Assembly: GCA_035610835.1 (NCBI GenBank)
Contig: CM069457.1
Span: 21,136,658-21,200,657, forward strand
Direction: 5' to 3'
DNA from: Ophiura sarsii
Lineage: Eukaryota; Echinodermata; Ophiuroidea; Amphilepidida; Ophiuridae
DNA: 64,000 nucleotides
The notes under the pieces: model-generated
Seen by the model: the letters and a program-made list of their open reading frames with translations, nothing else
What the model was told of the DNA's origin: nothing
Database searches by the model: none
Shown here: positions 14,380 to 60,483 of the stretch, in pieces
Layout: each line of letters opens with the position of its first letter
Position numbering within the stretch: position 1 is the stretch's first letter
Made by a program: the position numbers and the translations under genes

Positions 14380-14945
14380 TTGGTGAGGCATATCTTGCGA
14401 ATGATGTTTGGCAGTCAAGCATATCTTGCGAGTGATACTTTATAATCAGGCATATCGTGCGAGTGGTGTTTGGCGGTCAGGCATATCCTGTAAGTGATGG
14501 GCAAGCATGTCTTGCAAGTGTTGTTTGGCAGTCGAGCATATCTTGCGAGTGATATTTGGCGATCAGGCATATCTTGCGAGTGTTATTTGGCGGTCAGTCA
14601 TATCTTCCGAGTGATGTTTGGCAGTCATGTATATCTTACGAGTGCTATTTGAAGGCCAGACATATCTTGCGAGTGATGTTTGGAGGCAGTCAAGCATATC
14701 TTACGGCAAGCATAGTTTGCGAGTGATGTTTGGCGGTCAGGCATATCTTGCGAGCAATATTTGGGGGACAAGCAATGCGGGTGATGTTTGTCATTCAAGC
14801 TCATCTTGCGAGTGATTTATGGCGGTCAGGCATGTATTGCGAGTGATGTTTAGCGGTTAGGCATATCTTGCGAGTGATGTTTGGCGGTCAGACATATCTT
14901 GCAAGTGATGTTTAACGGTGAATACGGATGTCAGACATATCTTGG
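14380..14945 (+). repeat. Degenerate ~31 bp minisatellite in intron
   Basis: The core CATATCTTGCGAGTGATGTT, followed by TGGCGGTCAGG, repeats about 17 times with many substitutions and small indels. Open frames across it simply translate the repeat. Confidence 0.9.
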
Positions 14946-22258: not shown

Positions 22259-22408
22259 GGGACGATTTTTGTTTTAAAACCGTATTTAATATTTTTTTTG
22301 AAACAATGACAAAAAAGGGGGAAAAGTGAAGAAAAAAGTCACTTTTTGGTGTTTTTTTGTCAAAATTTCAAAAAATATTAAACTAGGTTTTAAAAAAAAT
22401 CGTCCCCA
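22259..22408. mobile_element. 150 bp hairpin MITE
   Basis: Arms at 22259-22317 and 22353-22408 are imperfect inverted copies with ends GGGACGATTTTT / AAAAATCGTCCC and shared TTTAATATTTTTT-TTTTGAAA. The presumed splice acceptor of the recombinase exon (cccaacttag) follows immediately. Confidence 0.75.
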
Positions 22409-22414
22409 ACTTAG

Positions 22415-23061
22415 TGTCTCTACATCATGCTTTTCTTTGTAATCGCGGACAAGAGAACTTGAGGGATATGCAACCGTCAGACTTTTTGTTGGAGACTGAT
22501 GATGAGAGGATCCGGTTTATTTCCCGAAGAGATATGTTCACAAAGAATAACCGAGAAGATGCCGATGAGAAAATTGGAGGTAAGATGTATGAGCTGCCTG
22601 GAAACCCCAGATGTCCAGTTGACTCATTCTTACGGTATAAAGCTATACTTCATCCTTTGTGCCCAGCTTTCTGGCAAAAACCACGTGAAGTTGCACCAGA
22701 AGATCCAGAGCAGCCATGGTACTGCAATTCTCCAGTGGGCAATAACACACTCAATAAGAAGATGAAAGTGATATCGACAACTGCTGGGTGTGCCACAATG
22801 TACACAAACCATTGCCAACGTGCAACGTGTGTCACAGTGTTGGATCGTGAAGGCTTCGCAAGTCGTGATATAATGACAGTAAGTGGGCATCACTCCGAAA
22901 CATCCATCAAGCATTACAGCAAAACAAGCGATGCGCCAAATGAGCAACGCTATTGCTCGCAAGTCAATGTCGACTGCTACTGCTGTGAAACCACCCACTC
23001 CAGCTCCACTGATGACTGGGCCTACTACAAGTTTTTGAATATGTTTTATATAGAACCATGA
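22415..23061 (+). CDS. Crypton/DUF3504-like tyrosine recombinase domain, terminal exon
   Basis: The open frame encodes about 215 residues resembling the catalytic half of tyrosine recombinases of the Crypton / DUF3504 (ZMYM-QRICH1-KIAA1958-like) group. FLCNRGQENLRDM carries the first catalytic Arg. MYELPGNPRCPVDSF is the typical linker. TNHCQRATCVTVL has the H-x-x-R box, and MTVSGHHSETSIKHYS the distal His and the nucleophile Tyr. Residues expected in the active site (R, H-x-x-R, H, Y) are all present, so the domain could be catalytic. The frame has no ATG before the domain. An acceptor (ccccaacttag, AG at 22413-22414) is the likely start, so upstream exons are missing from view, or this is a 5'-truncated element. 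After the Tyr there is a 40-residue Cys/Ser-rich tail, then TGA. It could be a mobile Crypton or a domesticated host gene; the sequence does not decide. Confidence 0.82.
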
Positions 23062-25682: not shown

Positions 25683-26441
25683 TTAAGTGTAAATACCTAC
25701 TTTATCCCATTTCATGTAATGAAATCCCAGCCTCCCTCTTTGTCTCGCTAGGGTCCCCTCTAGTCGGGCAGTGTCTCTGATTACTATGTCAAAGACACCG
25801 ATCGACAGAGAGGACCCCCTATATTTGCAGATGCAAATATATCTGCGGGCCATTAAGAGAAGCTGGTTCCTCATTAACCACTCATCATCATCATCATCAT
25901 CATGATTAAATATACCGAATAGTTTTTCAACATTAGTGAGATTGTCAAACAAATCATTCCACTTCTGTTTTAAGTCATTCCAAAATTTAACAACATCAGG
26001 GCAAGTGATAAAAATGTGGTCAAGAGTTTCGATCTCAATTTTGCATCTCAAACAATTTGGGCTTTTAACAATACCAATTTTATGCAGCCATTTATTTGTT
26101 GGTGAAATAAAATGGTTAATTCTAAACTGTAACCATCGTAGTCTGTTATCGATTGTAACTCTCCATGGCAACATAAACAAGTCTTTATAAACAGGCATTT
26201 CAAGACCATACACGTTTTTCAACGTAGCAATGCATTTGGGGGTTGTGTTAGCTTTCTTAATAAACTGCCGGTAAATTGTACTAGACTTCGTAGTATCAAT
26301 TGGATAAAAATTATCATCAAATGTGTACCCGATCATTTCATCATGCTTTGTTATGACAGTTCTATTACCATTACAAGTGGTCATTTTTATTTTCTTACGC
26401 CATTTATCAGGAATGGCTTGAATAATACCGTACCACTTCAT
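25683..26441 (-). pseudogene. LINE-2 ORF2 C-terminal domain
   Basis: This 252-codon open frame contains the region downstream of RT in L1/Tx1-type ORF2: a Trp/Arg-rich stretch, then C-x2-C-x7-H-x4-C (NCLRCKIEIETLDHIFITC), the typical Cys-His motif. A GAT/ATC microsatellite gives an Asp run (DDDDDDD). It overlaps nothing else and follows the preceding frame at 26470-26742 after a frameshift. Confidence 0.85.
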
Positions 26442-26797
26442 ATACCGTAGTTCAAGTTAACACTCTGTGTTATGCCCAATGTATGAAAGGGACGAATACA
26501 ATTCTTGTCAAATAGGTCACCGATTTTAACAATACCGGCCTGATAAAATTGTTGGTAGATTTATTATTTATCAACACCTGACTATTGTTCCAAATCACCT
26601 GATTGCTTGTTTCCTCAACAGTATCTGGTTCACCATGTTTTGAGTTTAATTCTGCATAGGCATTAAGAATACTAATATAAAATTGCGGTATGTGATTACT
26701 CAATTTCTTAGTGTCAAAACTACATTTCAATAACAATTCCATACCACCACATCCTGTTATATAGTAGTTGAGAATCTTCTTCCAACCAGCTTGATTA

Positions 26798-27457
26798 TCA
26801 GTAAAGTATCTCAGTAAAGTATCTTTTTAACCACATAAGTTGCTGTGCCTTGATTCTAGAAATAATGTCCACCATCTTTAGGCCCCCATTTTCGTAGCTA
26901 GCATTTAATTCAGACCTTTTTGCCTTATCTGGACCATTCCAGATAAACTGGTGAACGATAGAATTGACCTTCTTTTGTATTGCAATAGGTGTGGTAACCA
27001 TACTTGTGATGTACAATAATTTTGAAAGACCAAAAACTTTTGCAATGACAATCTTACCAATACCAGTGAGATCCCTATTTTTCCATAGAGCCAGAGTTTG
27101 CTTCAAAGATGTTATTTTATCTTCAAAATTACGAGCATGTGCAAGTTTTTCATTATATGAGAACACAATACCCAGCACTTTTACACTCTCAGCCCAAATC
27201 ACTGGTAGTGGTTTTTCGTTTGATTTTCTAACCTTACCCAGCCACATGGCTTCCGTTTTATCAGTATTAACCTTAAGTGATGAGCATATATAAAAATCAT
27301 CCAGAAGTTGCAATATGTATTGTGCAGAATTGATATCTTTTGGGAAACATGTAAGATCATCTGCATAACAGGATACCTTCAAAGTATTAGCATGATCCAG
27401 CTCTATACCTCTAATGTTCTTGTCCTCTCTTATATTAATCAGGAGTACCTCTATCAC
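26798..27457 (-). pseudogene. LINE-2 reverse transcriptase, distal half
   Basis: The frame starts inside the RT fingers/palm after an internal deletion and carries the catalytic CYADDLTCFPKD (motif C), then KTEAMWLGKVR, the LTGIGKIVIAKVFGLSK thumb region and FIWNGPDKAKRS. The upstream frame at 27454-27969 holds NKTPGNDGLTAEFYKQFW, GSYRPITLLNVDLKIGSKAI and LLNIDFEKAYDSIDHEF (motif A). Confidence 0.88.
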
Positions 27458-28468
27458 AACAACAAATAAAATTTAATAATTTTTGCAAGAAATTCATGAT
27501 CAATGGAGTCATATGCTTTTTCAAAATCAATGTTAAGTAAAATACCTGGGTGGTTTTTGTATTTTGTGAAATAAATAAGATCTGCAACAGTTCTTACTGC
27601 ATCACCAATGTAACGTTCGTTGACACAGGCTGATTGTTCAATGCCAATAATGTCGGGTAAAATCTTCGCCACTCGTTTTGCAATTGCCTTTGAACCAATT
27701 TTCAAATCAACGTTAAGTAAAGTAATTGGACGATAACTGCCAATTTTACGCTTATCTTTACCTTTTTTTAGAATAAAGGTAATCACGCCTTGTTTTTGTG
27801 AATTAATCAATTCCCCTTTTAGATAACTTGCATTTAAACTATCAACCAATGTTCCACCGAATAGGTGCCAAAATTGCTTATAAAATTCAGCAGTCAAACC
27901 ATCGTTCCCTGGGGTTTTATTATTTTGGAAAGTATTAAGCACTTCAAAACATTCATTTAGTGTTAACATACCTTCACATAATTCTTGTTGATCTATATAT
28001 ATTCAACTTGGGAATTTTGTCATGCATAAAAATTTTATCAACCTTCACAGAATTCAAATCAACATCTTTCTTTGTATATAGATTTGCATAAAATGTTTTG
28101 ATCTCATTCAAAATATTACTCTGATCGTTAGAAATCTCACCATCATCAAGTAAAATAGTGTTAATCGTACTTTTGATCTTATTGGCTTTCTCCAAACCTA
28201 AGAAGTATTTATTACTTTTCTCACTCTGCTCCACCCATTGAGCTCTGGATCGGACAATAATACCCTGTGTGATAGAATTATACTCATTTTCGAGCTGTTC
28301 TTTAGCAACATTCCATGCCCTTTCGTTATCCTCTGAAGGGTGACTACATAAATTGATTTCATTCTCCTTGACCTTATCCTCCAGGTTTTTCAGATGTTGG
28401 CGCTTCTTTTGGGCTTTCTTTTTACTAAATGACTGCGAAAATTGTCTAATCTCAAACTTAATCAACTC

Positions 28469-29284
28469 CTACAAGATTCTTTTATCATCCATATCAATGT
28501 AAGTCTGAATCCAAGTTGGTGCTAATCTGGTGATTTCCTGACAAAACTTAACATCATCACACAGGGAATTATTGAACTTCCAATAAGATGGACCACGGAT
28601 ATTATTTGACACATTATCAATATTTAAGAAAATTAGAGAGTGATCAGTACTGATAGAAGGCAAAATACCAACATTTTTCACCATGTCTTGTATTGTGTTT
28701 GACACAAACCAAAGATCAAGTCTGCTTTGAATCAGTGGTTTTTTTTGTCTCCACGGGTACTGACGCTGATACGGATTTCTTATACGCCAGATGTCAACTA
28801 AATCAAGACCGTCAAGAAAATTATGAATTGCATGCATAACATTGTCGTCATGGCGTGGGTTTCCACCCGCTCTATCCAGACCAATATTCATCAAAAGATT
28901 TATATCACCACCACATACAATATTTTTCTCGTGTACATTCTCAATGTTTGAAATAAGAAGAGACAATTGATTCCAAAATTCAGCCTGCTCTTTTAGTTTA
29001 CTTACACATGGGGCATAAACATTAATAATGAGAAAACTTTCACCTTTTACATTTACATCCAGAATAATAAATCTTCCATTTGGGTCACTCATACAATACT
29101 TGATCTCATAATCCAGAGTATTTCTGATTAATATTGCCACTCCTTTGCTATGGTTAGTGCCATTTGAAAAGACACATTTCCACGGCTTCCATTCATTACT
29201 CCACTTCTTTTCAATTTCATTAGTACTGTATGTTTCCTGCAAAATAATTATATCAGCATTCTTTTTTGTTAACCAATTAAACAT
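28469..29284 (-). pseudogene. LINE-2 AP-type endonuclease
   Basis: The frame encodes a 271-residue exonuclease-endonuclease-phosphatase domain: IIILQETYST (metal-binding Glu), GVAILIRN, VYAPCV, VCGGDINLLMN (Asp/Asn) and STDHSLIFLNI (catalytic Ser-Asp-His). The natural start lies upstream at 29385, reading MNNIRDC then LMSLNVRGIR, but a frameshift near 29290 separates the two. The catalytic residues appear intact. Its role would be to nick target DNA for target-primed reverse transcription. Confidence 0.88.
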
Positions 29285-29381
29285 CTTTTTACGTTTAAAA
29301 TAGGTACGGACCGGGTACGGATACCACGTACATTTAAGGACATCAAATTCACCTTAACATTTCCACAATCCCTTATGTTAT

Positions 29382-30440: not shown

Positions 30441-31090
30441 TTTCATAATATCGATACATGTATAACACATTTTCATATGCTTTTTAGCATGTTTACATTG
30501 CATATCAATTTACTTTCCAGCATTTTTATATGCTTTTCGGCATGTTTACATTCGTAATTTTCACATTTCATGTCAAAATACATATTTTTCACATTTCATT
30601 GTTCATGCCTACAAATACATATGCTTTTCACATTTTCATATGCTTTTAAGCATGTTTTCCTTGCATATCATGTATAGCACAATTTCATATGCTTTTCAAG
30701 CATGCTTCCATTGCTTATCATTACATGTTAACACATTTTCATATGCTTTTCAGCCTTTTTACATTTTCATGTTTACAAGTTTACATTCATGTTCACATGT
30801 TTACATTACATATCAGCATTTTTACATGTTCATGTTTACATTTTTCACATTTCACATGTTTACATTACTTGCCTGTCATATGCTTTTCAGTATGATTACA
30901 TTGCCTATCATGTATAGCACATTTTTATATGCTTTTCAGCATGTTTGTATATGCTTTTCATTCACATAATTTTCATAGTTTCAATCGCATGTATAACACA
31001 TTTTCATATGCTTTTCAGGTTTACATTGCATACCATTACATAACACATATGCATTTCGGCATATTTACATTCATGTTCACATCATTTTTA

Positions 31091-31229
31091 CATTTCATGT
31101 TTACATTTCATGTTTACATTTCATGTTTACATTTCATGTTTACATTTCATGTTTACATTTCATGTTTACATTTCATGTTTACATTTCATGTTTACATTTC
31201 ATGTTTACATTTCATGTTTACATTTCATA
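31091..31229 (+). repeat. 13 bp tandem repeat block A (~10.7 copies)
   Basis: Uninterrupted CATTTCATGTTTA units are perfect throughout. They are flanked by TTCATGTTCACAT-AATTTTTA-type sequence on both sides, as is block B. Confidence 0.97.
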
Positions 31230-31270
31230 TTAATTACGGCATATTTAAATTCATGTTCACATAATTTTTA

Positions 31271-31435
31271 CATTTCATGTTTACATTTCATGTTTACATT
31301 TCATGTTTACATTTCATGTTTACATTTCATGTTTACATTTCATGTTTACATTTCATGTTTACATTTCATGTTTACATTTCATGTTTACATTTCATGTTTA
31401 CATTTCATGTTTACATTTCATGTTTACATTTCATA
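31271..31435 (+). repeat. 13 bp tandem repeat block B (~12.7 copies)
   Basis: The unit is the same CATTTCATGTTTA as in block A, again perfect. Blocks A and B, with their shared flanks (TTCATGTTCACAT), look like a duplicated segment. Confidence 0.97.
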
Positions 31436-32384: not shown

Positions 32385-35300
32385 CATGTTTACAATACAT
32401 AGCATCATGTTCATGTTTAGATTGTTGTAAATCTTCTTTCATTTTTTAGATCAATTCTTCCAGAGTTTTCTAATTTTAAGTTCTAAATATAAGACACTTA
32501 GTAAATCAGGATGTTTTCCATATCTGTACTTACTAATAGTTGATTTGGCAACACTAATACACGTATTGACGATATTAGTGTTCTTGTTATTATCATCATG
32601 GTAGCCAAACAATACATCTTTTTGCAATATCTTTATGTCTAGATTATACTGTTGCAAAAGTATTCTTTCAGTCTCTTTCCATATTATTTTGATTTTCTTA
32701 CAACTATAAAAGAAATGTTCAATGTAATCTATTTCGTTACAAGTTTCACAGATATCATTTTCTTCCTTCTTTATTTTCTTAAGAAATACTTTTGTTGGAT
32801 AAATGTTGCTAATGATTTTCCAGTTCAATGTTTTTAGTTGTGGCTCTTTGATGTCTTGAACAAGTGTTTTCCAAATAATGGACCAATCGAAATTCATTAT
32901 CGAGCTTATTTTCCCAGAAATTTTGACATCTTGGTTTCAATGATATCTGTGATTGCATTGCTATTCTGTACAGTTTTGTTGTACATTTAGATAATTTAAC
33001 AAAGGCTTCTCCATAATTAAAATTTACGTCATAGATATTGTTTAAAGAATCTGTAGATGTTTTCCACGTATGTGGCATTGCTTGTCTTAAAGCAATGTAT
33101 TTCAACACAAAACTACCATCATTTTTAAAATGCAATTTCAGCTCCTCCATTGACTTAAATTCCCTTTTTTGGTTATACAGATCTGAGACGTACATTATAC
33201 CCTTCTTTGCCCATTCCTTAAAATATAATGTTTTACCTCTACTAGTTATACATTCATTATTCCAAATAACCTGATTTTCCCACGATTCTACTTGATCTAT
33301 GTTCTGGGAACATTTTGTTAAAAACCAAGCCTTAATCAAATTACTATAGAACATGGGATATCTTTGACTTAAACAATTCGTTCATACTTTCTAAAGTACA
33401 GTTGCATTTTAAAATATTGAGACCCACATATGTTTCGCTTAATAAATGTAGTGGAATCATTTTCCATGTGTCTGTTTCGGGAGACATCAGCTTTTTTAAC
33501 CAAGAAATCTTTAACGAATCTAAAAAATATTTAAAGTTCAGCATTTGTAGCCCACCATTTCCATAGTCATTGGATAAGGTCGTTCTCTTTACTTTTTCTG
33601 AGCCTCCCCATACAAATTTGAAGAATAAGCTATTTATTCGGTTTATAAACACTTTAGGTAAGTCTGATATTGAACCTATATACGTAAATTTAGATGCCAA
33701 AAGACTTTTTACTATTTGTATTTTACCTACCATTGACAGATTTCTCATCGTCCAAGACCTAATTGCCTTTTCTATTGAGTCCATTTTAGCGTCCCAGTTT
33801 ACACACATCTCTTCTAATTTAATACACGGATTTACTACAACACCCAATATTTTTACATTATTGTTGGGATGAAACTTCCAATTTATACCTCCAACCCCTT
33901 GCTTTCTATGTTTTCTTGACCCCATCCAAAGTGCATCGCTCTTTGTTTTGTTTAGCTGTAACCCAGAAATAACTGTAAAATTATCAAGTACATTTATGAC
34001 ATTATATATAGACTTTTCATCCTTTACAAAAATAGTAGTATCATCCGCAAATTGTGTTATCTTTACCTCTTTGATACCCTGATCTACATAGGGTAATTCA
34101 ATTCCTCTAATTTCACTTGATTGTCTTATTTTATTGGCCATGATTTCAGCCGCTATGATAAACAATAATGGTGATAAATTACAACCTTGTCTAAGACCGT
34201 CTTCTTGCATAAAGAAGTTTGACATGTGACCATTATGAGATATACAACTTAGTGTATTATAAAACAAAGTAGTTATCCATTTTTTCATGGATTCACCAAA
34301 GTTAAAACTTTCAATAGCATATAAAATAAAATCTCTTCTTATGGTGTCAAAAGCTTTACGAAAATCAATACAAATCATAGCACCTTCGATATTATTTTCA
34401 TCGGTATATCTTAAGACATCTTCTATCAGTCGAATACTTAATGCTGCTCCGCGCTTACATAGAAAACCGTTTTGATCTGAATTTATTATAGAGGGTAATA
34501 TTTTATTTATTCTTGAAGCAAGTGTTTTTGCTGCAATTTTGTAGTCTATATTCAGAAGTGTGATAGGTCTCCAATTGTCAAGATTGTTTCTCGGGAGTCC
34601 CTTTCCTTTATGAATCAAAGAAATAATACCACGTTTCTATGAAGATGAGAGTTCGTTATTTTCATATGCTTCATTGAAAGAATTAATGACCAATCGGCCT
34701 ACAAGATTCCAGTGACACTTGTAAAATTCTGCTGTTAGACCATCATACCCGGGACTTTTATTGTTTGCCATTTTATCCAACGATATTTTACACTCATCTG
34801 AAGCAAGTGGCCCCTCACATGATTCTTTATTACCCTGGGATAACCTTTTCATGTTTATATCTTAAACGAAAGTTTCATAGGTATGTTTTGAACTTGTACC
34901 TGTTTTTTTATATATATTCTCGTAATATTGTACTTGCATCTTAATAAGATCATCTTGTTTTTTCACAACATTCCCATTATTGTCAATCAAATCGGTTACT
35001 GATTTGTTGCAAATATTTCTTTTTTCTAGGTTCATAAAATATTTAGAACATTTTTCACCTTCTTCTGCCCACTGTACTTTGCTTCTGATGATTAAACCGT
35101 TCATGTAGTGATGATAAAGTAACTCATATTCCAGTTTTATTTTTTCATATTCTTCTGCAAAATTAATATTTTTGGGATCTGATACGATGTTTTCAAAAGC
35201 AATTTTCATGCATTTTTTCCAGATTGCACATTTTTAATTCATTTTCTTTTTTGCTCCCTTTTGCAAACTCTACTGAAAACGTTATAATTTTGTTTTTGCA

Positions 35301-46193: not shown

Positions 46194-47060
46194 ATAACTT
46201 TTTAACCATATACATTTCAAAGCTATGCATTGAGATTTTAAATCACTTATTTGTATTCCTCCCACATTATAATTTCGAATGAGAGTCTTTCTCTTTATTT
46301 TCTGAGGGTTTTTTTTCCATAAGAAATTGAAAATAATTGAGTTCACTTCATTCGTGAAGACGGTTAGACAAGACATTAGATTGGATAGACCAAGACATTT
46401 TATAATAATTGCTTTACTATACAGCGTTAGCTTTTTCCTATACCATGAATTCAAGATTCGAATTAGTATATCTTCTCTTGCCAAATGCTCTTGTAACATT
46501 GTATTATATTGTGTCCAAAATATACACCAAGAGATTTAACATTTTTAGTTGGCCGTTTTACAGAGTTATGTTTTAAAAAGTGACCAAATGCTAAACCTTG
46601 AGTTTAATTTTCTTTAATATAACTTTCTTTAATTTTTGGAACTGCAAAAAATCCAAATGTATTAATGATTTTCAACATGCTATCAAGAGATTCTTTCGTT
46701 GAGCAGAAAAGAGTTGTATCGTCAGCAAATTGGCTAATACGAGCTTCACATTTTTCTTCGTCATTTTCATCAATGGCAATACCAAAGTAAGACTTCTGAG
46801 ACAAACAAGAGTGCAGAAACAGACAGCCCTGACGCAAACCTCTGCTCTGCTCAATCTAAAGAAACTTTGATTTCCAACCAAGATTTAAAACAGAAATCTC
46901 AATATTATTATACATTACAGTAATCCAATGGATAAAAGATGGCCCAAAATGAATCTTCTGTAATGTTTGAACTACAAAGTTCCATTCGACGGTGTCGAAC
47001 GCTTTTTCAAAATCAACAAACTAAATAGCAGCCGATTTATTCTCATTTATACATAGTTAA
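46194..47060 (-). mobile_element. LINE-6 segment c: reverse transcriptase
   Basis: Minus frames include FVDFEKAFDTVEWNFVVQTL (motif A), GLRQGCLFLHSCLS (degenerate motif B), ISQFADDTTLFCSTKESL (motif C), ILNSWYRKKLTLYSKAIIIK and FNFLWKKNPQKIKRKTLIRN. Stops and shifts are present. It stops in ENKSAAI at 47060, where the TTAA element begins, and resumes at 51164. Confidence 0.87.
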
Positions 47061-50019
47061 AAAGTGGGGTGACGGGGATGAGACATGACATTTTATATTA
47101 ATACACTCTTATAACTGAACAAATGTTCATAGTTGTAAAATTTACTCCCTGTAAAATAAATACATTTACTTCTTTCAACAACTAATTGTTGTGTTAGAAA
47201 TATCTCTTTATTACCCCAGGATAAATTCCTCATATTAGATCTCAGGTTACGTCTCATCTCCGTTAACCCCCCCCCCCCCCCCCCCCCCCACCCTCCTTAT
47301 AATTCCGATACGGAATAAACCTAACTTTTACAAATCACGAGCGCCTGGTACCCCTTATAATTCCGATACGGAATAAACCTTACTTTCACAAATCACGAGC
47401 ACCTGGTACAAGTCACCCTTCATTTTAAATATATCCCGTTTGTTCTATAATACGGAATAAACTAACATTTGTCTTGTTAAAAATATATCTTCTCCCCCCA
47501 CCCCTCCCGCCCCCACAAGCTACGTCTCATACCCGTCACCCCTCTTTTTAGATATATCCCGTTTGTTCTATAATACGGAATAAACCAACATTTATCATCT
47601 ATACAATATATCTTTCCCCGCTCCCACCCCTCCCGCCCTCCCCCCCCACATTCTGCGTCTCATCCCCGTCACCCCACTTTTTAAACATATCCCGTTTGTT
47701 CTATAATACGGAATAAACAAACATTTGTCAAATTTAAAATACATCTTCTCCCGCCCCACCCCTCCCAACCCCACATGCTACGTCTCATCCCCGTCACCCC
47801 TCTTTTTAAATATATCCCGTTTGTTCTATAATACGGAATAAACCAACATTTGTCATATTTACAATATAGCTTTTCCCGCTCCCGCCCCCCCCCCCCCCCC
47901 CCCCCCCACACACACACATTCTGCGTCTCATCCCCGTCACCCCACTTTTTAAACATATCCCGTTTGTTCTATAATACGGAATAAACACGACGGTGTCGAA
48001 CGCTTTTTCAAAATCAACAAACTAAATAGCAGCCGATTTATTCTCATTTATACATAGTTAAAAAGTGGGGTAACGGGGATGAGACATGACATTTTATATT
48101 AATACACTCTTATAACTGAACAAATGTACATAGTTGTAAAATTTACTCCCTGTAAAATAAATACATTTACTTCTTTCAACAACTAATTGTTGTGTTAGAA
48201 ATATCTCTTTATTACCCCAGGATAAATTCCTCATATTAGATCTCAGGTTACGTCTCATCTCCGTTAACCCCCCCCCCCCCCCCCCCCCCCCCACCCTCCT
48301 TATAATTCCGATACGGAATAAACCTAACTTTTACAAATCACGAGCGCCTGGTACCCCTTATAATTCCGATACGGAATAAACCTTACTTTCACAAATCACG
48401 AGCACCTGGTACAAGTCACCCTTCATTTTAAATATATCCCGTTTGTTCTATAATACGGAATAAACTAACATTTGTCTTGTTAAAAATATATCTTCTCCCC
48501 CCACCCCTCCCGCCCCCACAAGCTACGTCTCATACCCGTCATCCCTCTTTTTAGATATATCCCGTTTGTTCTATAATACGGAATAAACCAACATTTATCA
48601 TCTATACAATATATCTTTCCCCGCTCCCACCCCTCCCGCCCTCCCCCCCCCCCCCCCCCCCCACATTCTGCGTCTCATCCCCGTCACCCCACTTTTTAAA
48701 CATATCCCGTTTGTTCTATAATACGGAATAAACAATCATTTGTCAAATTTAAAATACATCTTCTCCCGCCCCACCCCTCCAAACCCCACATGCTACGTCT
48801 CATCCCCGTCACCCCTCTTTTTAAATATATCCCGTTTGTTCTATAATACGGAATAAACCAACATTTGTCATATTTACAATATATCTTTTCCCGCTCCCGC
48901 CCCCCCCCCGCCCCCCCCCCCCCCCCCCACACACACATTCTGCGTCTCATCCCCGTCACCCCACTTTTTAAACATATCCCGTTTGTTCTATAATACGGAA
49001 TAAACACGACGGTGTCGAACGCTTTTTCAAAATCAACAAACTAAATAGCAGCCGATTTATTCTCATTTATACATAGTTAAAAAGTGGGGTGACGGGGATG
49101 AGACATGACATTTTATATTAATACACTCTTATAACTGAACAAATGTTCATAGTTGTAAAATTTACTCCCTGTAAAATAAATACATTTACTTCTTTCAACA
49201 ACTAATTGTTGTGTTAGAAATATCTCTTTATTACCCCAGGATAAATTCCTCATATTAGATCTCAGGTTACGTCTCATCTCCGTTAACCCCCCCCCCCCCC
49301 CCCCCCCCCACCCTCCTTATAATTCCGATACGGAATAAACCTAACTTTTACAAATCACGAGCGCCTGGTACCCCTTATAATTCCGATACGGAATAAACCT
49401 TACTTTCACAAATCACGAGCACCTGGTACAAGTCACCCTTCATTTTAAATATATCCCGTTTGTTCTATAATACGGAATAAACTAACATTTGTCTTGTTAA
49501 AAATATATCTTCTCCCCCCACCCCTCCCGCCCCCACAAGCTACGTCTCATACCCGTCACCCCTCTTTTTAGATATATCCCGTTTGTTCTATAATACGGAA
49601 TAAACCAACATTTATCATCTATACAATATATCTTTCCCCGCTCCCACCCCTCCCGCCCTCCCCCCCCCCCCCCCCCCCCCCCACATTCTGCGTCTCATCC
49701 CCGTCACCCCACTTTTTAAACATATCCCGTTTGTTCTATAATACGGAATAAACAAACATTTGTCAAATTTAAAATACATCTTCTCCCGCCCCACCCCTCC
49801 CACCCCCACATGCTACGTCTCATCCCCGTCACCCCTCTTTTTAAATATATCCCGTTTGTTCTATAATACGGAATAAACCAACATTTGTCATATTTACAAT
49901 ATATCTTTTCCCGCTCCCCCCCCCCCCCCCCCCCCCCCCCCACACACACACATTCTGCGTCTCATCCCCGTCACCCCACTTTTTAAACATATCCCGTTTG
50001 TTCTATAATACGGAATAAA
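46988..50019. repeat. Three tandem ~1.0 kb units containing LINE plus transposon sequence
   Basis: CGACGGTGTCGAACGCTTTT starts units at 46988, 47988 and 49007 (1000, 1019 and ~1013 bp). Each opens with the same ~72 bp piece of LINE-6 RT (encoding DFEKAFDTV in reverse) followed by the left part of the TTAA element. The first unit is continuous with the real LINE-6, so the array arose by duplication across the insertion junction after the element had entered the LINE. Units are almost identical except for C-run lengths. Confidence 0.93.
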
Positions 50020-51163
50020 CAAACATTTGTCAAGTTGAAAATACATCTTCTCCCGCCCCCACCCCTCCCACGCCCACATGCTACGTCTCATCCCCGTCAC
50101 CCCTCTTTTTAAATATATCCCCTTTGTTCTATAATACGGAATAAACAAACATTTGTCAAATTTAAAATACATCTTCTCCCGCCCCACCCCTCCCACCCCC
50201 ACATGCTACGTCTCATCCCCGTCACCCCTCTTTTTAAATATATCCCGTTTGTTCTATAATACGGAATAAACCAACATTTGTCATATTTACAATATATCTT
50301 TTCCCGCTCCCGCCCCCCCCCCCCCCCCCCACATTCTGCGTCTCATCCCCGTCACCCCACTTTTTAAACATATCCCGTTTGTTCTATAACACGGAATAAA
50401 CAAACATTAATTGTCAAGTTTAAAATATATCTTCTCCCGCCCCCACCCCTCCCGCCCCCACATACTACGTCTCATCCCCGTCATCCCTCTTTTTAAATAT
50501 ATTCCGTTTGTTCTATAATCCGGAATAAACTAACATTTGTCTTGTTAAAATTATATATCCTGTCCCGCCCCCCCCCCCTCCCTCCCGCCCCACCCCACAT
50601 GCTGCGTCTCATCCCCGCCACCCCACTTTTTAAATATATCCCGGTTGTTCTAGAATACGGAATAAACCAACATTTGCATTGTTTACAATACATCTTCTCC
50701 CGCCCCGCTCCCCTCCCGCCCCCTCCCATATATACATGTACTCTCTATCGTGTTAGCTCGACCTCCATTTAATTAGACCTCTACTACAGCTGAAAATGGT
50801 GAGTAGAATGAACTTTCTATTACGACACGTTTATATCTTCCAACAACTAATGGTTGTGATAGATATTATTATCTCTTTATTAAGCGGACCACGTGTTCCT
50901 GAATTTAGTTTTCAGGTTGCACCCTTCCCCCCCCCCCCCCCCCCACACACCCATTCCTTGTAGTCCCTTACACAACCCCAGCATGACTTATACTCTATAC
51001 TTTTATAACTGAACAATATTGATAGTTGTTACAGTGGCTCCCGTCTATGACACTTTGATATCCTTCAACAACTGATTGTTGTTTTATAGTAATATCTCTT
51101 AGTATCTCATGAATTCAGGATATTAGATTTCAGGTTGCGTCTCATCCCCGTCACCCCACTTTT
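47061..51163. mobile_element. TTAA-flanked element with expanded internal repeats (in LINE-6)
   Basis: The left end AAAGTGGGGTGACGGGGATG begins after TTAA (47057-47060). The right end, inverted, reads AAAAGTGGGGTGACGGGGAT before TTAA at 51164-51167. LINE-6 continues on both sides. A ~230 bp module (CTTATAACTGAACAA ... CAACAACTAATTGTTGT ... TTAGATCTCAGGTTACGTCT) occurs near both ends. Between them, sub-repeats of ~100-140 bp carry TCTCATCCCCGTCACCCC, CCCGTTTGTTCTATAATACG and C-rich runs. The end motif itself is thus repeated many times inside. Open frames here (YYRTNGI-type) are repeat products. Confidence 0.85.
50020..50740 (+). repeat. ~110-135 bp sub-repeats of the TTAA element
   Basis: Further copies of GTCTCATCCCCGTCACCCC, ATATATCCCGTTTGTTCTAT and ACGGAATAAAC-AACATTTGT lie here without the LINE piece, separated by variable C-rich tracts. 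Divergence rises toward 50740. Confidence 0.88.
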
Positions 51164-54521: not shown

Positions 54522-54849
54522 GAATTCGGCACATATGGCTTTACTGGAATGTCTATCTATCGCCATCACTTTAACCCTTTTCCTATGAAATACGTTTCTG
54601 GGTTCGGAGTACCTTTAGAATACCCTACCATTTTTGAAGCGCGACTATTTTAAAAAATGCGGCGGCGACGCCGTCGTCGAAAACGGCTGTCATAGTTTCA
54701 ATATTTTGTTTTCTTGGTTTCACGCGAAGGTGTTTGTTGGGTATAATCATGATAATGGCATACACGCGGGACTTTGTAGAAATTACCTAAGTGTTGAGCG
54801 AGCCGTTGTGAAAATGTGCTTAAGTGCAAGACGAAAGGTATTTCATTTT

Positions 54850-56472
54850 TTGTGGCTTCGGCGGCGACGGCGGGCGGCTTCGGCAGTGGCGACGGCGCGA
54901 AGCTTCACCCCTTAAAAAAAGTGGATTCGGCGACGGCGCGAAGGAGGAGGTATGACGGGATCAGTTGTAGATGGAAGCTTGATTATTTTTTGTGGCTTCG
55001 GCGGCGACGGCGACGGCGCGAAGCTCCATCCTTTTAAAAAGTGGATTCGGCGACGGCGCGAAGTTCAACCCTTTTAAGAAACATCGGATGCGGCGACGTC
55101 GCGGAGCTCCATCCTTTTAAAAAGTGGATTCGGCGACGGCGCGAAGTTCAACCCATTTAAGAAACATCGGATGCGGCGACGTCGCGGAGCTCCATCCTTT
55201 TAAAAAAGTGGATTCGGCGACGGCGCGAAGGAGGAGGTATGACGAAATCGGTTGAAAAACGGAAGCTTAATTCTTTTAGTGGCTTCGGCGGCGACGGCGA
55301 CAAGCGCCATCCTTTTAAAAGGGTGGATTTAGCGACGGCGCGGAGCTTTACCTTTTAAAAAAATGGGCTTCGGCGGGAAGGAGGGTTTTATTCTGGCTTC
55401 GGCGGCTTCGGCGACGGCGTCAAAGCTTGACTTTTTAAAAAAAAAGTGGATTCGGCGACGGCGCGAAGGAGGAGGTATGACGGGATCGGTTTGTAGATGG
55501 AAGCTTGATTATTTTAGTGGCTTCGGCGGCTACGGCGACGGCGCGAAGCTCCATCCTTTTAAAAAGGTGGATTCAGCGACGGCGCGAAGCTTTACCTTTT
55601 TAAAAAATGGGCTTCAGCGGGAAGGTGGGTTTTATTCTGGCTTCAGCGGCTTCGGCGACGGCATCAAAGCTTGACTTTTTAAAAAAGTGGATTCGGCGAC
55701 GGCGCGAAGGAAGAGGTATGACGGGATCGGTTGAAAAACGGAAGCTTGATTATTTTAGTGGCTTCGGCGGCGACGGCGACGGCGCGAAGCTCCATCCTTT
55801 TAAAAAGATGGATTCAGCGACGGCGCGAAGCTTTACCTTTTTAAAAAATGGGCTTCGGCGGGAAGGTGGGTTTTATTCTGGCTTCGGCGACGGCGTCAAA
55901 GCTTGACTTTTTAACAAAGTGGATTCGGCGACGGCGCGAAGGAAGAGGTATGACGGGATCGGTTGAAAAACGAAAGCTTGATTATTTTAGTGGCTTCGGC
56001 GGCGACGGCGACGGCGCGAAGCTCCATCCTTTTAAAAGGGTGGATTCAGCGACGGCGCGGAGCTTTACCTTTAAAAAAATGGGCTTCGGCGGGAAGGTGG
56101 GTTTTATTCTGGCTTCGGCGGCTTCGGCGACGGCGTCAAAGCTTGACTTTTAAAAAAAGTGGATTCGGCGATGGCGCGAATCTTTACCTCTTTAAAAATG
56201 GCCTTCGGCGGGAAGGTGGGTTTTTTTCTGGCTTCGACGGCGACGGCGCGAAGCTCCATCCTTTTAAAAAGGTGGATCCAGCGACGGCGCGAAGCTTTAC
56301 CTTTTTAAAAATGGGCTTCGGCGGGTAGGTTTTTTTCTTCTTCTGGCTTCGGCGGCTTCGCCGACGGCGTCAGAGCTTTACCTTTTAAACGCGAAGCTTT
56401 ACCTTTTTAAAAATTGCCTTCGGCGGGAAGGTGGGTTTTTTCTGGCTTCGGCGGCTTCGCCGACGGCGTGAA
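54850..56472 (+). repeat. Left-arm array: ~231-244 bp GC-rich units
   Basis: GGGCTTCGGCGGGAAGG-type starts occur at 55365, 55609, 55850 and 56081. Units contain GATTCGGCGACGGCGCGAAG, TATGACGGGATCGGTTG and CTCCATCCTTTTAAAAA. The left part (54850-55360) has shorter variants. The composition is strikingly GC-rich against AT-rich surroundings. Confidence 0.9.
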
Positions 56473-56697
56473 GCTCACATTCAAGTTCAAAGTCTAGTCC
56501 AAAACGGAGTAAAGCACATGGTCTATACAACTTTCAGCAAGACACTTAGTTGTCAGATTTTAATAAGATATATTTTTCTAGGTTGGCTTTTATCGAGTTT
56601 CAATCAGGCGCATTTTCCTGTTGACATAGAATGATCATTGATATATCATGTGAGCTATAGACACAATTTAGCAGATTTTCAAGTCTTCTTTGGTTTG

Positions 56698-58076
56698 AGC
56701 AATCTGTCATTTGTTGCATTGTGGGATTGCATATCAACAGTTTGGATGGTTGTTTTTTGACGGGGCTTTTAAAGAACGACCCATCATACATTTTAGAGGG
56801 CTCCATAGTTTGGATGGGGCTTTTAAAGAACGACCCAAAATCTATTATGCCAAACCTGTCATATATTATTGAAATTCACTCCCACAATGCAACGATTTAC
56901 GAACTTCTGTTGCATGCCTTAACAATAACGATTTACGAACTTCTTTGGTTTGAGCAATCTGTCATTTGTTGCATTGTGGGATTGCATATCAACAGTTTGG
57001 ATGGTTGTTTTTTGACGGGGCTTTTAAAGAACGACCCATCATACATTTTAGAGGGCTCAATAGTTTGGATAGGGCTTTTAAAGAACGACCCATAATCTAT
57101 TATGCCAAACCTGTCATATATTATTGAAATTCAGTCCCACAATGCAACGATTTACGAACTTCTGTTGCATGCCTTAACAATAACGATTTACGAACTTCTT
57201 TGGTTCGAGCAATCTGTCATTTGTTGCATTGTGGGATTGCATATCAACAGTTTGGATGGTTGTTTTTTGACGGGGCTTTTAAAGAACGACCCATCATACA
57301 TTTTAGAGGGCTCAATAGTTTGGATAGGGCTTTTAAAGAACGACCCATAATCTATTATGCCAAACCTGTCACATGATATTAAATGTCAGTCCCACAATGC
57401 AATATTAAGGGTCAAACATATTAAGGGTCAAACATAAATCTACTATGGCGATTTATTAACGACTAGCGGAACGCCCGTCCTTCGGACGGGCTCTCCCGCT
57501 AGGGAGTAGGGCCTACCAGATAGAACACCTATATACAAAATGAAACAACACATCAGTGTTGGAAAATTTATAACGATACACATAGGAATAGAACAATATT
57601 TAAAACATTTTTGTTTTAAATCAAAAGGTTTTGTTTTAGGGCCTAATTCAAAAGTGTTCTAACCTGTCATATATTATTGAAATTCACTCCCACAATGCAA
57701 CGATTTACGAACTTCCGTTGCATGCCTTAACAATAACGATTTACGAACTTCTTTGGTTTGAGCAATCTGTCATTTGTTGCATTGTGGGATTGCATATCAA
57801 CAGTTTGGATGGTTGTTTTTTGACGGGGCTTTTAAAGAACGACCCATCATACATTTTAGAGGGCTCAATAGTTTGGATGGGGCTTTTAAAGAACGACCCA
57901 TAATCTATTATACCAAACCTGTCATATATTATTGAAATTCACTCCCACAATGCAACGATTTACGAACTTCTGTTGTATGCCTTAACAATAACGATTTACG
58001 AACTTCTTTGGTTTGAGCAATCTGTCATTTGTTGCATTGTGGGATTGCATATCAACAGTTTGGATGGTTGCTATTT
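56698..58076 (+). repeat. Core array: five 255 bp direct repeats with an interruption
   Basis: AGCAATCTGTCATTTGTTGC starts units at 56698, 56953, 57208, 57761 and 58016, exactly 255 bp apart except across 57208-57761, where about 298 bp is inserted. Inside each unit, GGGGCTTTTAAAGAACGACC occurs twice, and TCCCACAATGCAAC / GTTGCATTGTGGGA is an inverted pair. Confidence 0.95.
57380..57665. mobile_element. Insert in core array with Helitron-like hairpin end
   Basis: At 57473-57491 GCCCGTCC-TTC-GGACGGGC forms an 8 bp GC hairpin. Seven bases after it comes CTAG (57499-57502). A hairpin placed about 7-12 nt before CTRR is the hallmark of Helitron 3' ends. The outer pair CTAGCGG (57463) / CCGCTAG (57496) encloses the hairpin. 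The rest of the insert is AT-rich and noncoding, and the 5' end is not defined. Confidence 0.45.
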
Positions 58077-58248
58077 CTAGATTTGAAATTCTACTATTGT
58101 CTATATCTCACATGATATATCCGGGGATATAATTATCAATGATCATTCTAAGCAGTGGTACTTATTTGAGTTATTAATCAAACAACGTTGAATTTCTAGA
58201 TTTGAAATTCTACTATTGTCTATATCTCTCATGATATATCCGGGGATA
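58077..58248 (+). repeat. Duplicated ~50 bp block at the inner edge of the right arm
   Basis: TAGATTTGAAATTCTACTAT then TGTCTATATCTC-CATGATATATCCGGGG occurs at 58077 and 58196. A single related inverted copy lies near 56625-56665 in the left arm. Confidence 0.85.
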
Positions 58249-58319
58249 TGATCATTCTATGTCAACAGGGAAATGCGGGAAATGGGGATTAAATGATTGA
58301 TTAACGATTTACGAACTTC

Positions 58320-59250
58320 TTTGGTTTCGCCGTCGCCGAAGCCGCCGAAGCCAGAAAAAAACACACCTTCCCGCCGAAGCCCATTTTTAAAAAGGTAAAG
58401 CTTCGCGCCGTCGCCGAAGCCCTCTTTAAAAAGGTGAAGCTTCACGCCGTCGCCGAAGCCGCCGAAGCCAGAAATAAACACACCTTCCCGCCGAAGTCCA
58501 TTTTTAAAAAGGTAAACCTTCGCGCCGTCGCCGAAGCCCCCTTTAAAAAGGTGAAGCTTCACGCCGTCGCCGAAGCCGCCGAAGCCAGAAAAAAAACACC
58601 TTCCCGCCGAAGCCCATTTTTAAAAAGGTAAAGCTTCGCGCCGTCGCCGAAGCCCTCTTTAAAAAGGTGAAGCTTCACGCCGTCGCCGAAGCCCCCTTTA
58701 AAAAGGTGAAGCTTCACGCCGTCGCCGAAGCCGCCGAAGCCAGAAAAAACACACCTTCCCGCCGAAGCCCATTTTTAAAAAGGTAAAGCTTCGCGCCGTC
58801 GCCGAAGCCCTCTTTAAAAAGGTGAAGCTTCACGCCGTCGCCGAAGCCAGAAAAAAAAACACCTTCCCGCCGAAGCCCATTTTTAAAAAGGTAAAGCTTC
58901 GCGCCGTCGCCGAAGCCCTCTTTAAAAAGGTGAAGCTTCACGCCGTCGCCGAAGCCACCGAAGCCAGAAAAAAACACCTTCCCGCCGAAGCCCATATTTA
59001 AAAATGTGAAGCTTCACGCCGTCGCCGCCGAAGCCAGCAAAAAAAAACACCTTCCCGCCGAAGCCCATTTTTAAAAAGGTAAAGCTTCGCGCCGTCGCCG
59101 AAGCCCTCTTTAAAAAGGTGAAGCTTCACGCCGTCGCCGAAGCCGCCGAAGCCAGAAAAAAACACACCTTCCCGCCGAAGCCCATTTTTAAAAAGGTAAA
59201 GCTTCGCGCCGTCGCCGAAGTCATTTCTTAAAAGGTTAATCTTCGCGCCG
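58320..59250 (-). repeat. Right-arm array: ~115-120 bp GC-rich units
   Basis: About eight units of CTTCCCGCCGAAGCCCATTT, then AAAAAGGTAAAGCTTCGCGCCGTCGC, then CTCTTTAAAAAGGTGAAGCT. This is the inverse of the left-arm repeat but with a shorter unit, so the two arms have been homogenised separately. Confidence 0.92.
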
Positions 59251-59308
59251 TCGCCGTTGCCAGCGTTTTTTAAAGGTGGAGCTTGAAAAATGGTGGGGTA
59301 TTCTAAAG

Positions 59309-60483
59309 TTTAGCCCTGGGTTCTACTATACTTTATCTATTGAAACTTTTGATTTCTTTTTTCTTTTTTCAATTTCCTTTTTATCGCCAATCTCTCCGTT
59401 CCCTTTTAATTCTTTGCCACGGACACAGTCAGCTGCCTCGACGGCCGAGTGGGCTCGTCGATGAATTATTGAACAAAATAATTTTTCAACGCGTGACTTC
59501 TAATCTCACTTGGTTCACTTGTCCTTTTGTCTCTATTTTGTAATAAATTACGTTGTTTTATCATTTAAACATTGGAATTTCGATCTATACTATGCTATAC
59601 AAACGCTTATTTTCTTTTGAAATGTAATTGCAACAAATTGTTCAACGGCGGATAGATCTCGACGCATTTTTTATCATCGTGTTGCCGGTGATTTTTTTGT
59701 GACCGCCATCGTCTGGTTTTAGCCAGGGGGGGTAGGTCAGATCTTTTATGGCATCGGGCGGAGACAAATAAACGGGCTTGCAACATTGCCAAATTGAAAT
59801 CTCGCGTTTATCCATTTTCGTGTTTCCGCGAGAATACAATATAAACAAATGGCAGCGCCCATGAAGTGAAATGAACAACTAAATTTGCTCAGCAAATCCA
59901 CTTAATAGTACAATTATCACATTATCTATTACTCAACGAGTGCTGATACGAGTACGATGGACGTTATTTTGTATTTCGTTTTACCGTGACATGTATGTAG
60001 GACATTTGATGTGAAATACGGAGAATTTTTGAACACATTTTTTCAACCATACGGTTTACACGAAATGCCCGAAATACCGCATGTACGGTCACTGTATACG
60101 ATGTATCATCAGCCGCAGTGCATTCAATTCATTCAGTTCACAAGAAGACACCGACAAGAAACACGTTAAGTCCATGATTTAATACAGTGTTCATTCCAAT
60201 ACATCATCTGTGCCCATCATCTGCTCTGGTGGTGTAGTCTTGACACTGACAGGAACACATTGACCTAGCTGGTATGGCTGGATTGTTGTAACCAGACCAG
60301 GGATGTGTATATCTGTTGTAACTTAAAGTTATGGTAAGCTTTACCTTTTAATAATTTATAATATAATAAATTATAATAGTTCAATACAATTGTGCACTTG
60401 GACTGAGGGTAATATCAATGCTTTTTTGTTATAGAGAATTAAAGGCTTAACCCTAACCCTCAATAAAGCTAACGTAGGGAGAC
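59309..60483. other. Unassigned DNA; possible noncoding exon end near 60334
   Basis: No protein domain was found. TTATG|gtaagc at about 60334 would be a good plus-strand donor; see the candidate acceptor at 61998. TAACCCTAACCCT at about 60450 is a short telomere-like motif with no array. Confidence 0.3.

What the first reader, a model, noticed from the sequence alone, without database searches (positions are those of the whole stretch)
54613..59308. Foldback-type element whose inverted arms are GC-rich tandem repeats with different unit sizes
Unique ends (CTTTAGAATACCC...) and unique inner-arm sequence (CCTGTTGACATAGAATGATC) are inverted across the element, so the whole 4.7 kb is one inverted-repeat structure. 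Yet the left arm has ~231-244 bp units and the right arm ~115-120 bp units of the same GGCTTCGGCGGCGACGG-type sequence. The arms therefore amplify and homogenise independently while keeping opposite orientation. The composition is unlike the flanks, and a 255 bp direct array fills the core. I know of comparable architecture only in FB/Galileo-like elements; the family may be undescribed.
Basis: partly seen in the sequence, partly recalled or inferred. Interest (0 to 1): 0.78.

Follow-up and report, generated by a model that had tools for sequence, protein, structure and literature searches.

The report
Foldback transposon with tandem-repeat arms
This is a mobile DNA element with no transposase gene found in it, whose two ends are mirror-image arms built from short GC-rich repeats that gain and lose copies separately in each arm; it belongs to a family of many copies in this animal genome and is a good but not unprecedented example of a 'foldback' transposon.

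Summary
The element is really 54606-59315 (4,710 bp), flanked by a perfect 8-bp target-site duplication CTGGGTTC. In 22 loci examined, 16 show both ends and 13 of those a perfect 8-bp duplication, each a different octamer, so it is a transposon, not a misassembly. Both GC-rich arms are built from one ~39-bp motif, as ~232/241-bp units on the left and 117-bp units on the right. Nine near-identical copies have left arms of 1,497-2,328 bp and right arms of 572-922 bp: the arms change length separately. Each arm's repeat type, however, is shared by all nine copies, with no sign of fresh homogenisation within a copy. Foldback reading supported; Galileo membership not. No transposase frame was found in 21 loci. 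Merlin-like and MULE transposases exist in the genome; those compared lie far from the listed ends. New here: end and a 20-bp internal motif are shared with ~106-122-bp MITEs and with a second foldback type with 74-bp arm units. The mobilising transposase is unidentified. New member of a known kind.

The parts
54598..54605 (.). left target-site duplication CTGGGTTC
   Evidence: identical to 59316-59323
54606..54850 (+). left end module; terminus GGAGTACCTTTAGAATACCCTACCATTTTT
   Evidence: 97-100% identical in L009-L016; 40 scored matches of 157 candidates to 54613-54800 in the genome
54851..56474 (+). left GC-rich array, ~232/241-bp units = about six ~39-40-bp sub-units
   Evidence: TRF; autocorrelation and unit split
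56475..56684 (+). left inner module with CCTGTTGACATAGAATGATC
   Evidence: 99.5-100% identical in L009-L016; inverted match to the right inner module
56685..57402 (+). core 255-bp direct array (2.8 copies), each full unit with two copies of the 20-bp motif (GGGGCTTTTAAAGAACGACC or one mismatch)
   Evidence: TRF; motif hits
57400..57665 (+). 266-bp spacer interrupting the core array
   Evidence: 99.6-100% identical where whole in L009-L016; present twice in L009, L010, L011 and once whole plus once partly in L012
57661..58076 (+). further partial and full core units
58073..58327 (+). right inner module (holds an internal direct repeat; inverted match to left inner module)
58328..59239 (-). right GC-rich array, 117-bp units = three 39-bp sub-units, inverted relative to the left array
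59240..59315 (-). right end module; reverse complement begins GGCTAAACTTTAGAATACCCCACCATTTTT
   Evidence: inverted match to the left end at 78.5% over about 61-65 bp
59316..59323 (.). right target-site duplication CTGGGTTC

Best explanation
A non-autonomous foldback (long inverted-repeat) DNA transposon. Shown: its ends, an exactly 8-bp target-site duplication, dispersal as many copies, near-identical unique modules with variable arrays, and no transposase-like frame in the copies read. Inferred: a transposase made elsewhere in the genome binds the ends, probably helped by repeated sites in the arms, and moves the element by cut-and-paste with 8-bp staggered cuts. The arms and core are minisatellites that gain or lose units by unequal exchange or replication slippage, each arm on its own; the two unit types (3 x 39 bp and about 6 x 39 bp) were set in a founder and spread with it. 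The element is one member of a clan of non-autonomous elements with the same ends, from ~106-122-bp MITEs to several-kb foldbacks, probably served by one transposase.
For: 13 of 16 two-ended loci have a perfect 8-bp duplication, none fits 7 or 9 bp. 274 exact matches to the 23-bp end pattern, 0 to the reversed control. Unique modules are nearly identical over nine copies (left end 97-100%, left inner 99.5-100%), while arrays differ in length: relative to the window copy, left-arm insertions of 231 (L014), 472 + 234 (L015) and 705 bp (L012), and right-arm losses in L010, L013 and L016. Arms share a ~39-bp motif. Four MITEs of 10 MITE-like loci show an 8-bp duplication and share the end with it; the 20-bp motif is in the window core (8 matches, 0 in 100 shuffles), in MITE-like loci L029, L031, L037, L048 and in the second foldback type L030, L033. 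L030 has 74-bp arm units, 2.9 copies left and 10.8 right. A 343-bp internally deleted copy, L058, keeps both ends and duplication ATATTTAC. No transposase-like frame among 23 stop-to-stop frames of 150 aa or more in 21 loci, 10 of the 23 scanned against Pfam. Multiple transposase sites in repeated long arms were measured for Galileo (PMC3688188, passages).
Against: No transposase was tied to the family, so movement in trans is inferred. 3 of 16 two-ended loci lack a duplication (L018, L020, L025) and 6 of 22 loci show one end only. Array differences do not all fall on single unit steps: in L009 and L013 the aligner split them into many pieces, and L016 has left losses of 83, 31 and 9 bp. They come from one assembly; collapse or expansion in assembly cannot be excluded. 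Pfam matches of the array frames (CopK, PCI and others; a sub-threshold Tc5 DNA-binding match in L020) have no stretch passing on its own and I read them as sums over repeats. No binding site in the arms was tested.
Confidence: 0.88

Rival explanations
1. On the open question of the superfamily: the mobilising transposase is a Mutator-like (MULE) one, as is usual for foldback elements.
For: 8-bp duplications lie within the 8-11 bp of MULEs, and Spectre MULEs have 8 bp (PMC6446971, passages). The Tetris paper says most foldbacks seem to belong to Mutator and gives 8-10 bp duplications (PMC4079207, passages). 43 MULE-domain matches in this genome.
Against: Of the 19 of 43 MULE matches on contigs C1-C5 that I compared with 199 listed end positions (of 1,021), the nearest is 44 kb away; the other 24 were not compared. 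Several MULE groups in the table passages seen have 9-bp duplications; here 9 bp fits none.
Confidence: 0.33
2. On the same question: the mobilising transposase is Merlin-like (IS1595 type), with short ends starting GG and an 8-bp duplication (family traits recalled, not from a call).
For: 39 matches to PF12762, several with long open frames.
Against: The 4 loci read (L054-L057, of 39 matches) show no inverted end pair with an 8-bp duplication in the ~3 kb read, and only one partial resemblance each in L054 and L057 to the 13-base end (up to 2 edits). Of 16 of 39 matches compared with 199 listed end positions the nearest is 78 kb away.
Confidence: 0.22
3. It is not a transposon but an inverted pair of satellite arrays made by local rearrangement or misassembly.
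For: Rich in tandem repeats; five fetched loci (L009, L014, L017, L019, L022) contain N gaps.
Against: Same ends and different 8-bp duplications at 13 loci; no N gap inside the nine near-identical elements.
Confidence: 0.02
4. The copy-to-copy array differences are assembly collapse or expansion rather than real gain and loss of units.
For: Arrays of 0.6-2.3 kb of GC-rich repeats are hard to assemble; the sequencing method is unknown here; in L009 and L013 the differences do not align as whole units.
Against: In L012, L014 and L015 the left differences are near-multiples of the unit, while L011 matches the window left arm without any indel over 8 bp; the second foldback type shows unequal arms too.
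Confidence: 0.12

Closest known systems
Galileo (P superfamily, Drosophila), subfamily F
   Same: Foldback-like long ends; tandem repeats inside the arms; different repeat numbers in the two arms of one copy, called independent TIR dynamism; chimeric copies bounded by different 7-bp sequences (PMC3573991, passages).
   Different: Galileo duplication is 7 bp, here 8; no P-type transposase tied to this family (search unanswered); here almost the whole arm is repeat, with a 3-mer versus 6-mer arrangement of one motif. Sequences not compared.
Tetris (Drosophila virilis foldback, placed in Mutator by its authors)
   Same: Non-autonomous foldback, 8-10 bp duplications, no autonomous copy found (PMC4079207, passages); tandem repeats (search listing).
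   Different: Three complete copies there, 13 with duplications read here; sequences not compared.
Drosophila FB elements
   Same: Inverted arms made of short tandem repeats (recalled).
   Different: Shared ends with a MITE family here; sequences not compared.
Rehavkus (Mutator-related)
   Same: Minisatellite next to the 3' end (PMC6446971, passages).
   Different: 9-bp duplication, one-sided minisatellite, coding element.
MITEs
   Same: The ~106-122-bp relatives here are typical: short, non-coding, inverted ends, 8-bp duplication.
   Different: The window element is about 40 times longer, with arrays.

Membership tests
Foldback-type DNA transposon (structural class) | long, internally repetitive inverted arms around a different core | tested here: met
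Foldback-type DNA transposon (structural class) | dispersed copies with target-site duplications | tested here: met
   13 of 16 two-ended loci, 22 loci examined
Galileo | 7-bp target-site duplication | tested here: not met
   8 bp in 13 of 16, 7 bp in none
Galileo / P superfamily | P-type transposase in an autonomous copy | not tested
   search not answered
Mutator-like elements | 8-11 bp target-site duplication | tested here: met
   8 bp; range from PMC6446971 passages
Mutator-like elements | MULE transposase between these ends | tested here: inconclusive
   19 of 43 MULE matches compared with 199 of 1,021 end positions, nearest 44 kb
Merlin | Merlin transposase between these ends | tested here: inconclusive
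   39 PF12762 matches; 16 compared, nearest 78 kb; 4 loci read without such ends
MITE (small relatives, not the window element) | short, non-coding, inverted ends, constant duplication length | tested here: met
   4 of 10 MITE-like loci read: L029, L034, L038, L045, 106-122 bp, 8-bp duplication; L029 and L034 share one flank, so at most three independent insertions; in the other 6 no duplication was found

The most novel reading that the evidence does not exclude
The two arms are end-specific, functional arrays: the same 39-bp motif was built into a 117-bp unit for the right end and a 232/241-bp unit for the left end, so that a transposase reads left and right ends differently, and the foldbacks grew from a ~115-bp MITE by tandem amplification of its own segments (the 20-bp motif sits once in the MITE and twice per 255-bp core unit).
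Probability: 0.22. Interest if true: 0.62.

Novelty: new member of a known kind. Interest (0 to 1): 0.42.

Why it matters
It gives a young, many-copy foldback family in which arm, core and end modules can be compared copy by copy, so the growth of tandem arrays inside a transposon and the step between MITE and foldback can be tested directly. It also bears on satellite origin: array DNA is being dispersed through the genome by a transposon. The general idea (repeats in foldback arms, independent arm length) is already in print for Galileo, and Tetris is a parallel for foldbacks feeding satellite DNA.

Tried and rejected
Rejected: misassembly or one-off rearrangement (13 loci with different 8-bp duplications). 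Transposase within the fetched copies: the window element has no stop-to-stop frame of 150 aa or more; the 21 loci (window plus L009-L028) hold 23 such frames within the spans examined, which I read as repeat or insert translations by eye, and the 10 of 23 scanned against Pfam gave only matches without a stretch passing on its own; shorter frames of 80 aa or more were listed only for L020, L024 and L028. Frames of L031-L033 gave Notch-ligand domains (L031) and weak sub-threshold matches. Structured RNA in the element: no Rfam match at gathering scores. Led nowhere: a paper search for the end sequence (0 papers); tying Merlin or MULE matches to the ends; finding the far end of the second foldback type (L030's right arm runs into another repeat near 4690; none found in L033's 7 kb). 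Not obtained: searches for P-type and Zisupton-type transposases, genome searches with the core and the inner module, and 20 short stretches at MITE-type ends (fetch from genomes), because the machine stayed busy. One search was a script error, repeated correctly. In one search the end-module identities (minimum 0.69 for the right end) are lowered by small shifts and by an approximate boundary that I set for L013, so I rely for module identity; L013's right-array length (723) is approximate too.
Full report
What is there. The sequence between 54598 and 59323 is an inserted element of 4,710 bp (54606-59315) with an 8-bp duplication, CTGGGTTC, on each side.

Copies. The left 188 bp match at least 40 places in the 1.57-Gb host genome (40 of 157 candidates scored; 5 identical over the full length, window included). 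I fetched 20 of the other 39 places, in the order of the table, and later one short copy chosen because its two ends lay close together (L058). Of these 21 and the window copy, 16 show both ends and 6 only one within the stretch read; 13 of the 16 have a perfect 8-bp duplication, none fits 7 or 9 bp, and three (L018, L020, L025) have different bases at the two sides, as recombined copies would. The 23-bp end pattern occurs 274 times exactly, the reversed control never.

Anatomy. Left end module, left GC-rich array, left inner module, core 255-bp array with a 266-bp spacer, right inner module, right GC-rich array, right end module. In nine near-identical copies (window, L009-L016) the left end is 97-100% identical to the window copy, the left inner module 99.5-100%, and the spacer 99.6-100% where it is whole. 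The other fetched copies form a second group, about 94-96% identical in the left end, with related parts but a rearranged, missing or interrupted core.

The arms. The left array has ~232- and 241-bp periods, the right array 117 bp. Splitting the window's units shows one basic motif of about 39 bp, TTTTTAAA..GGGCTTCGGCGACGGCGCGAAGCTTTACC: three make the right unit, about six the left unit. Lengths in the nine copies are 1,497-2,328 bp left and 572-922 bp right, correlation 0.40 (L013's right length is approximate). Relative to the window copy, left-arm insertions are 231 (L014), 472 + 234 (L015) and 705 bp (L012); in L009 and L013 the aligner splits the difference into many pieces, L016 has small losses, and L010 and L011 are nearly the same length; right arms are shorter in L010, L013 and L016. 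Counted by shared 15-mers, same arms of different copies share 0.89 (left) and 0.91 (right), the two arms of one copy 0.29, and opposite arms of different copies 0.287. So the arms change length separately, but each arm's repeat type is common to all nine copies and most simply came from a founder; there is no sign of exchange between the arms of a copy.

A clan with the same ends. Many exact left-type ends had no listed partner nearby, so I read 25 of them. By the bases after the end, 10 are MITE-like, 14 belong to another foldback type, and one to the window's second group. Four of the 10 MITE-like loci have a clear 8-bp duplication and are 106-122 bp long (L029, L034, L038, L045); L029 and L034 lie in the same flank and so are not independent; in the other six none was found. 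From the MITE right ends I inferred an intact form, GGAGTTCCTTTAGTATACCC; it has 747 exact matches and 0 in the control. I could not read any of these 747 places (fetch from genomes did not complete), and the four MITEs above carry slightly different right ends, so that these are MITE ends is an inference; two of them lie inverted 174 bp apart, the size of a MITE (C1:1918454-1918627). The motif GGTCGTTCTTTAAAAGYCCC occurs 8 times in the window, all in the core, with up to 2 mismatches against 0 in 100 shuffles, and exactly in 24 of 58 loci, among them MITE-like L029, L031, L037, L048 and the other foldback type L030, L033. In L030 that type has 74-bp arm units, 2.9 copies left and 10.8 right, inverted, and its left end resembles the window's right end. 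L058 is a 343-bp element with both ends and little between, most simply a deletion derivative.

How it probably works. Shown: insertion with an 8-bp duplication, spread of one structure, arrays of different length. Inferred: a transposase from elsewhere cuts at the ends; the arms may hold extra binding sites, as measured for Galileo (PMC3688188, passages). Units are gained and lost by unequal exchange or slippage. That the foldbacks arose from a MITE is possible but the direction is not shown; MITEs could equally be shrunken foldbacks.

Which transposase. No transposase-like frame was found in the copies: 23 stop-to-stop frames of 150 aa or more in 21 loci, none in the window element; 10 of them scanned in Pfam gave only repeat-summed matches, among them a sub-threshold Tc5 DNA-binding match in L020. 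Merlin-like (39 matches) and MULE (43) transposases exist in the genome. I compared 16 and 19 of them, those on C1-C5, with 199 end positions that the tool listed (of 1,021): the nearest lie 78 kb and 44 kb away. Four Merlin-like loci show no end pair of this kind in about 3 kb, only a partial resemblance in two. P- and Zisupton-type searches did not complete. The superfamily stays open; the 8-bp duplication fits several.

Comparison. It works like a foldback element and meets that structural definition. It is not Galileo by the duplication length. Independent arm repeat number is already described for Galileo F (PMC3573991, passages); Tetris is a close structural parallel (PMC4079207, passages). 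I found no paper on this family in the open library (searches; listings only). The host is an animal, judged from Notch-ligand exons in L031; the species is not given.

Noticed in passing
window 46987-50000: Three tandem copies of about 1.0 kb (spacing about 1,001 and 1,019; 99-100% identical over the two 300-bp stretches compared), strongly C-skewed (GC skew -0.53 to -0.57 over 47001-51000), with internal 125-148-bp arrays and poly-C runs.
   Followed up: partly
window 22387-23058 (+): Weak tyrosine-recombinase / DUF3504 match (E 2e-4, below the Pfam cut-off), perhaps a Crypton-like or ZMYM-like piece (names recalled).
   Followed up: no
window 25683-29353 and 32451-34636 (-): Two non-LTR retrotransposon remnants in several frames (endonuclease, reverse transcriptase and zf-RVT in the first; reverse transcriptase and zf-RVT in the second).
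   Followed up: no
window 14388-14913 and 31060-31434: 31-bp and 13-bp tandem arrays.
   Followed up: no
L030 194-4690: Second foldback type with 74-bp arm units, 2.9 copies left and 10.8 right; the right arm runs into another repeat near 4690.
   Followed up: partly
L031 194 onward: A MITE-like end beside exons of a Notch-ligand (MNNL/DSL) gene.
   Followed up: partly
G000 C1:33359377-33366344 and C1:33414445-33421412: Two end pairs with exactly the same 6,967-bp spacing 55 kb apart, suggesting a segmental duplication that carried the element.
   Followed up: no
L058 about 450-468: A stray MITE-type end (GGGAGTTCCTTTAGTATA) lies about 20 bp beyond the right duplication of the 343-bp element.
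   Followed up: no
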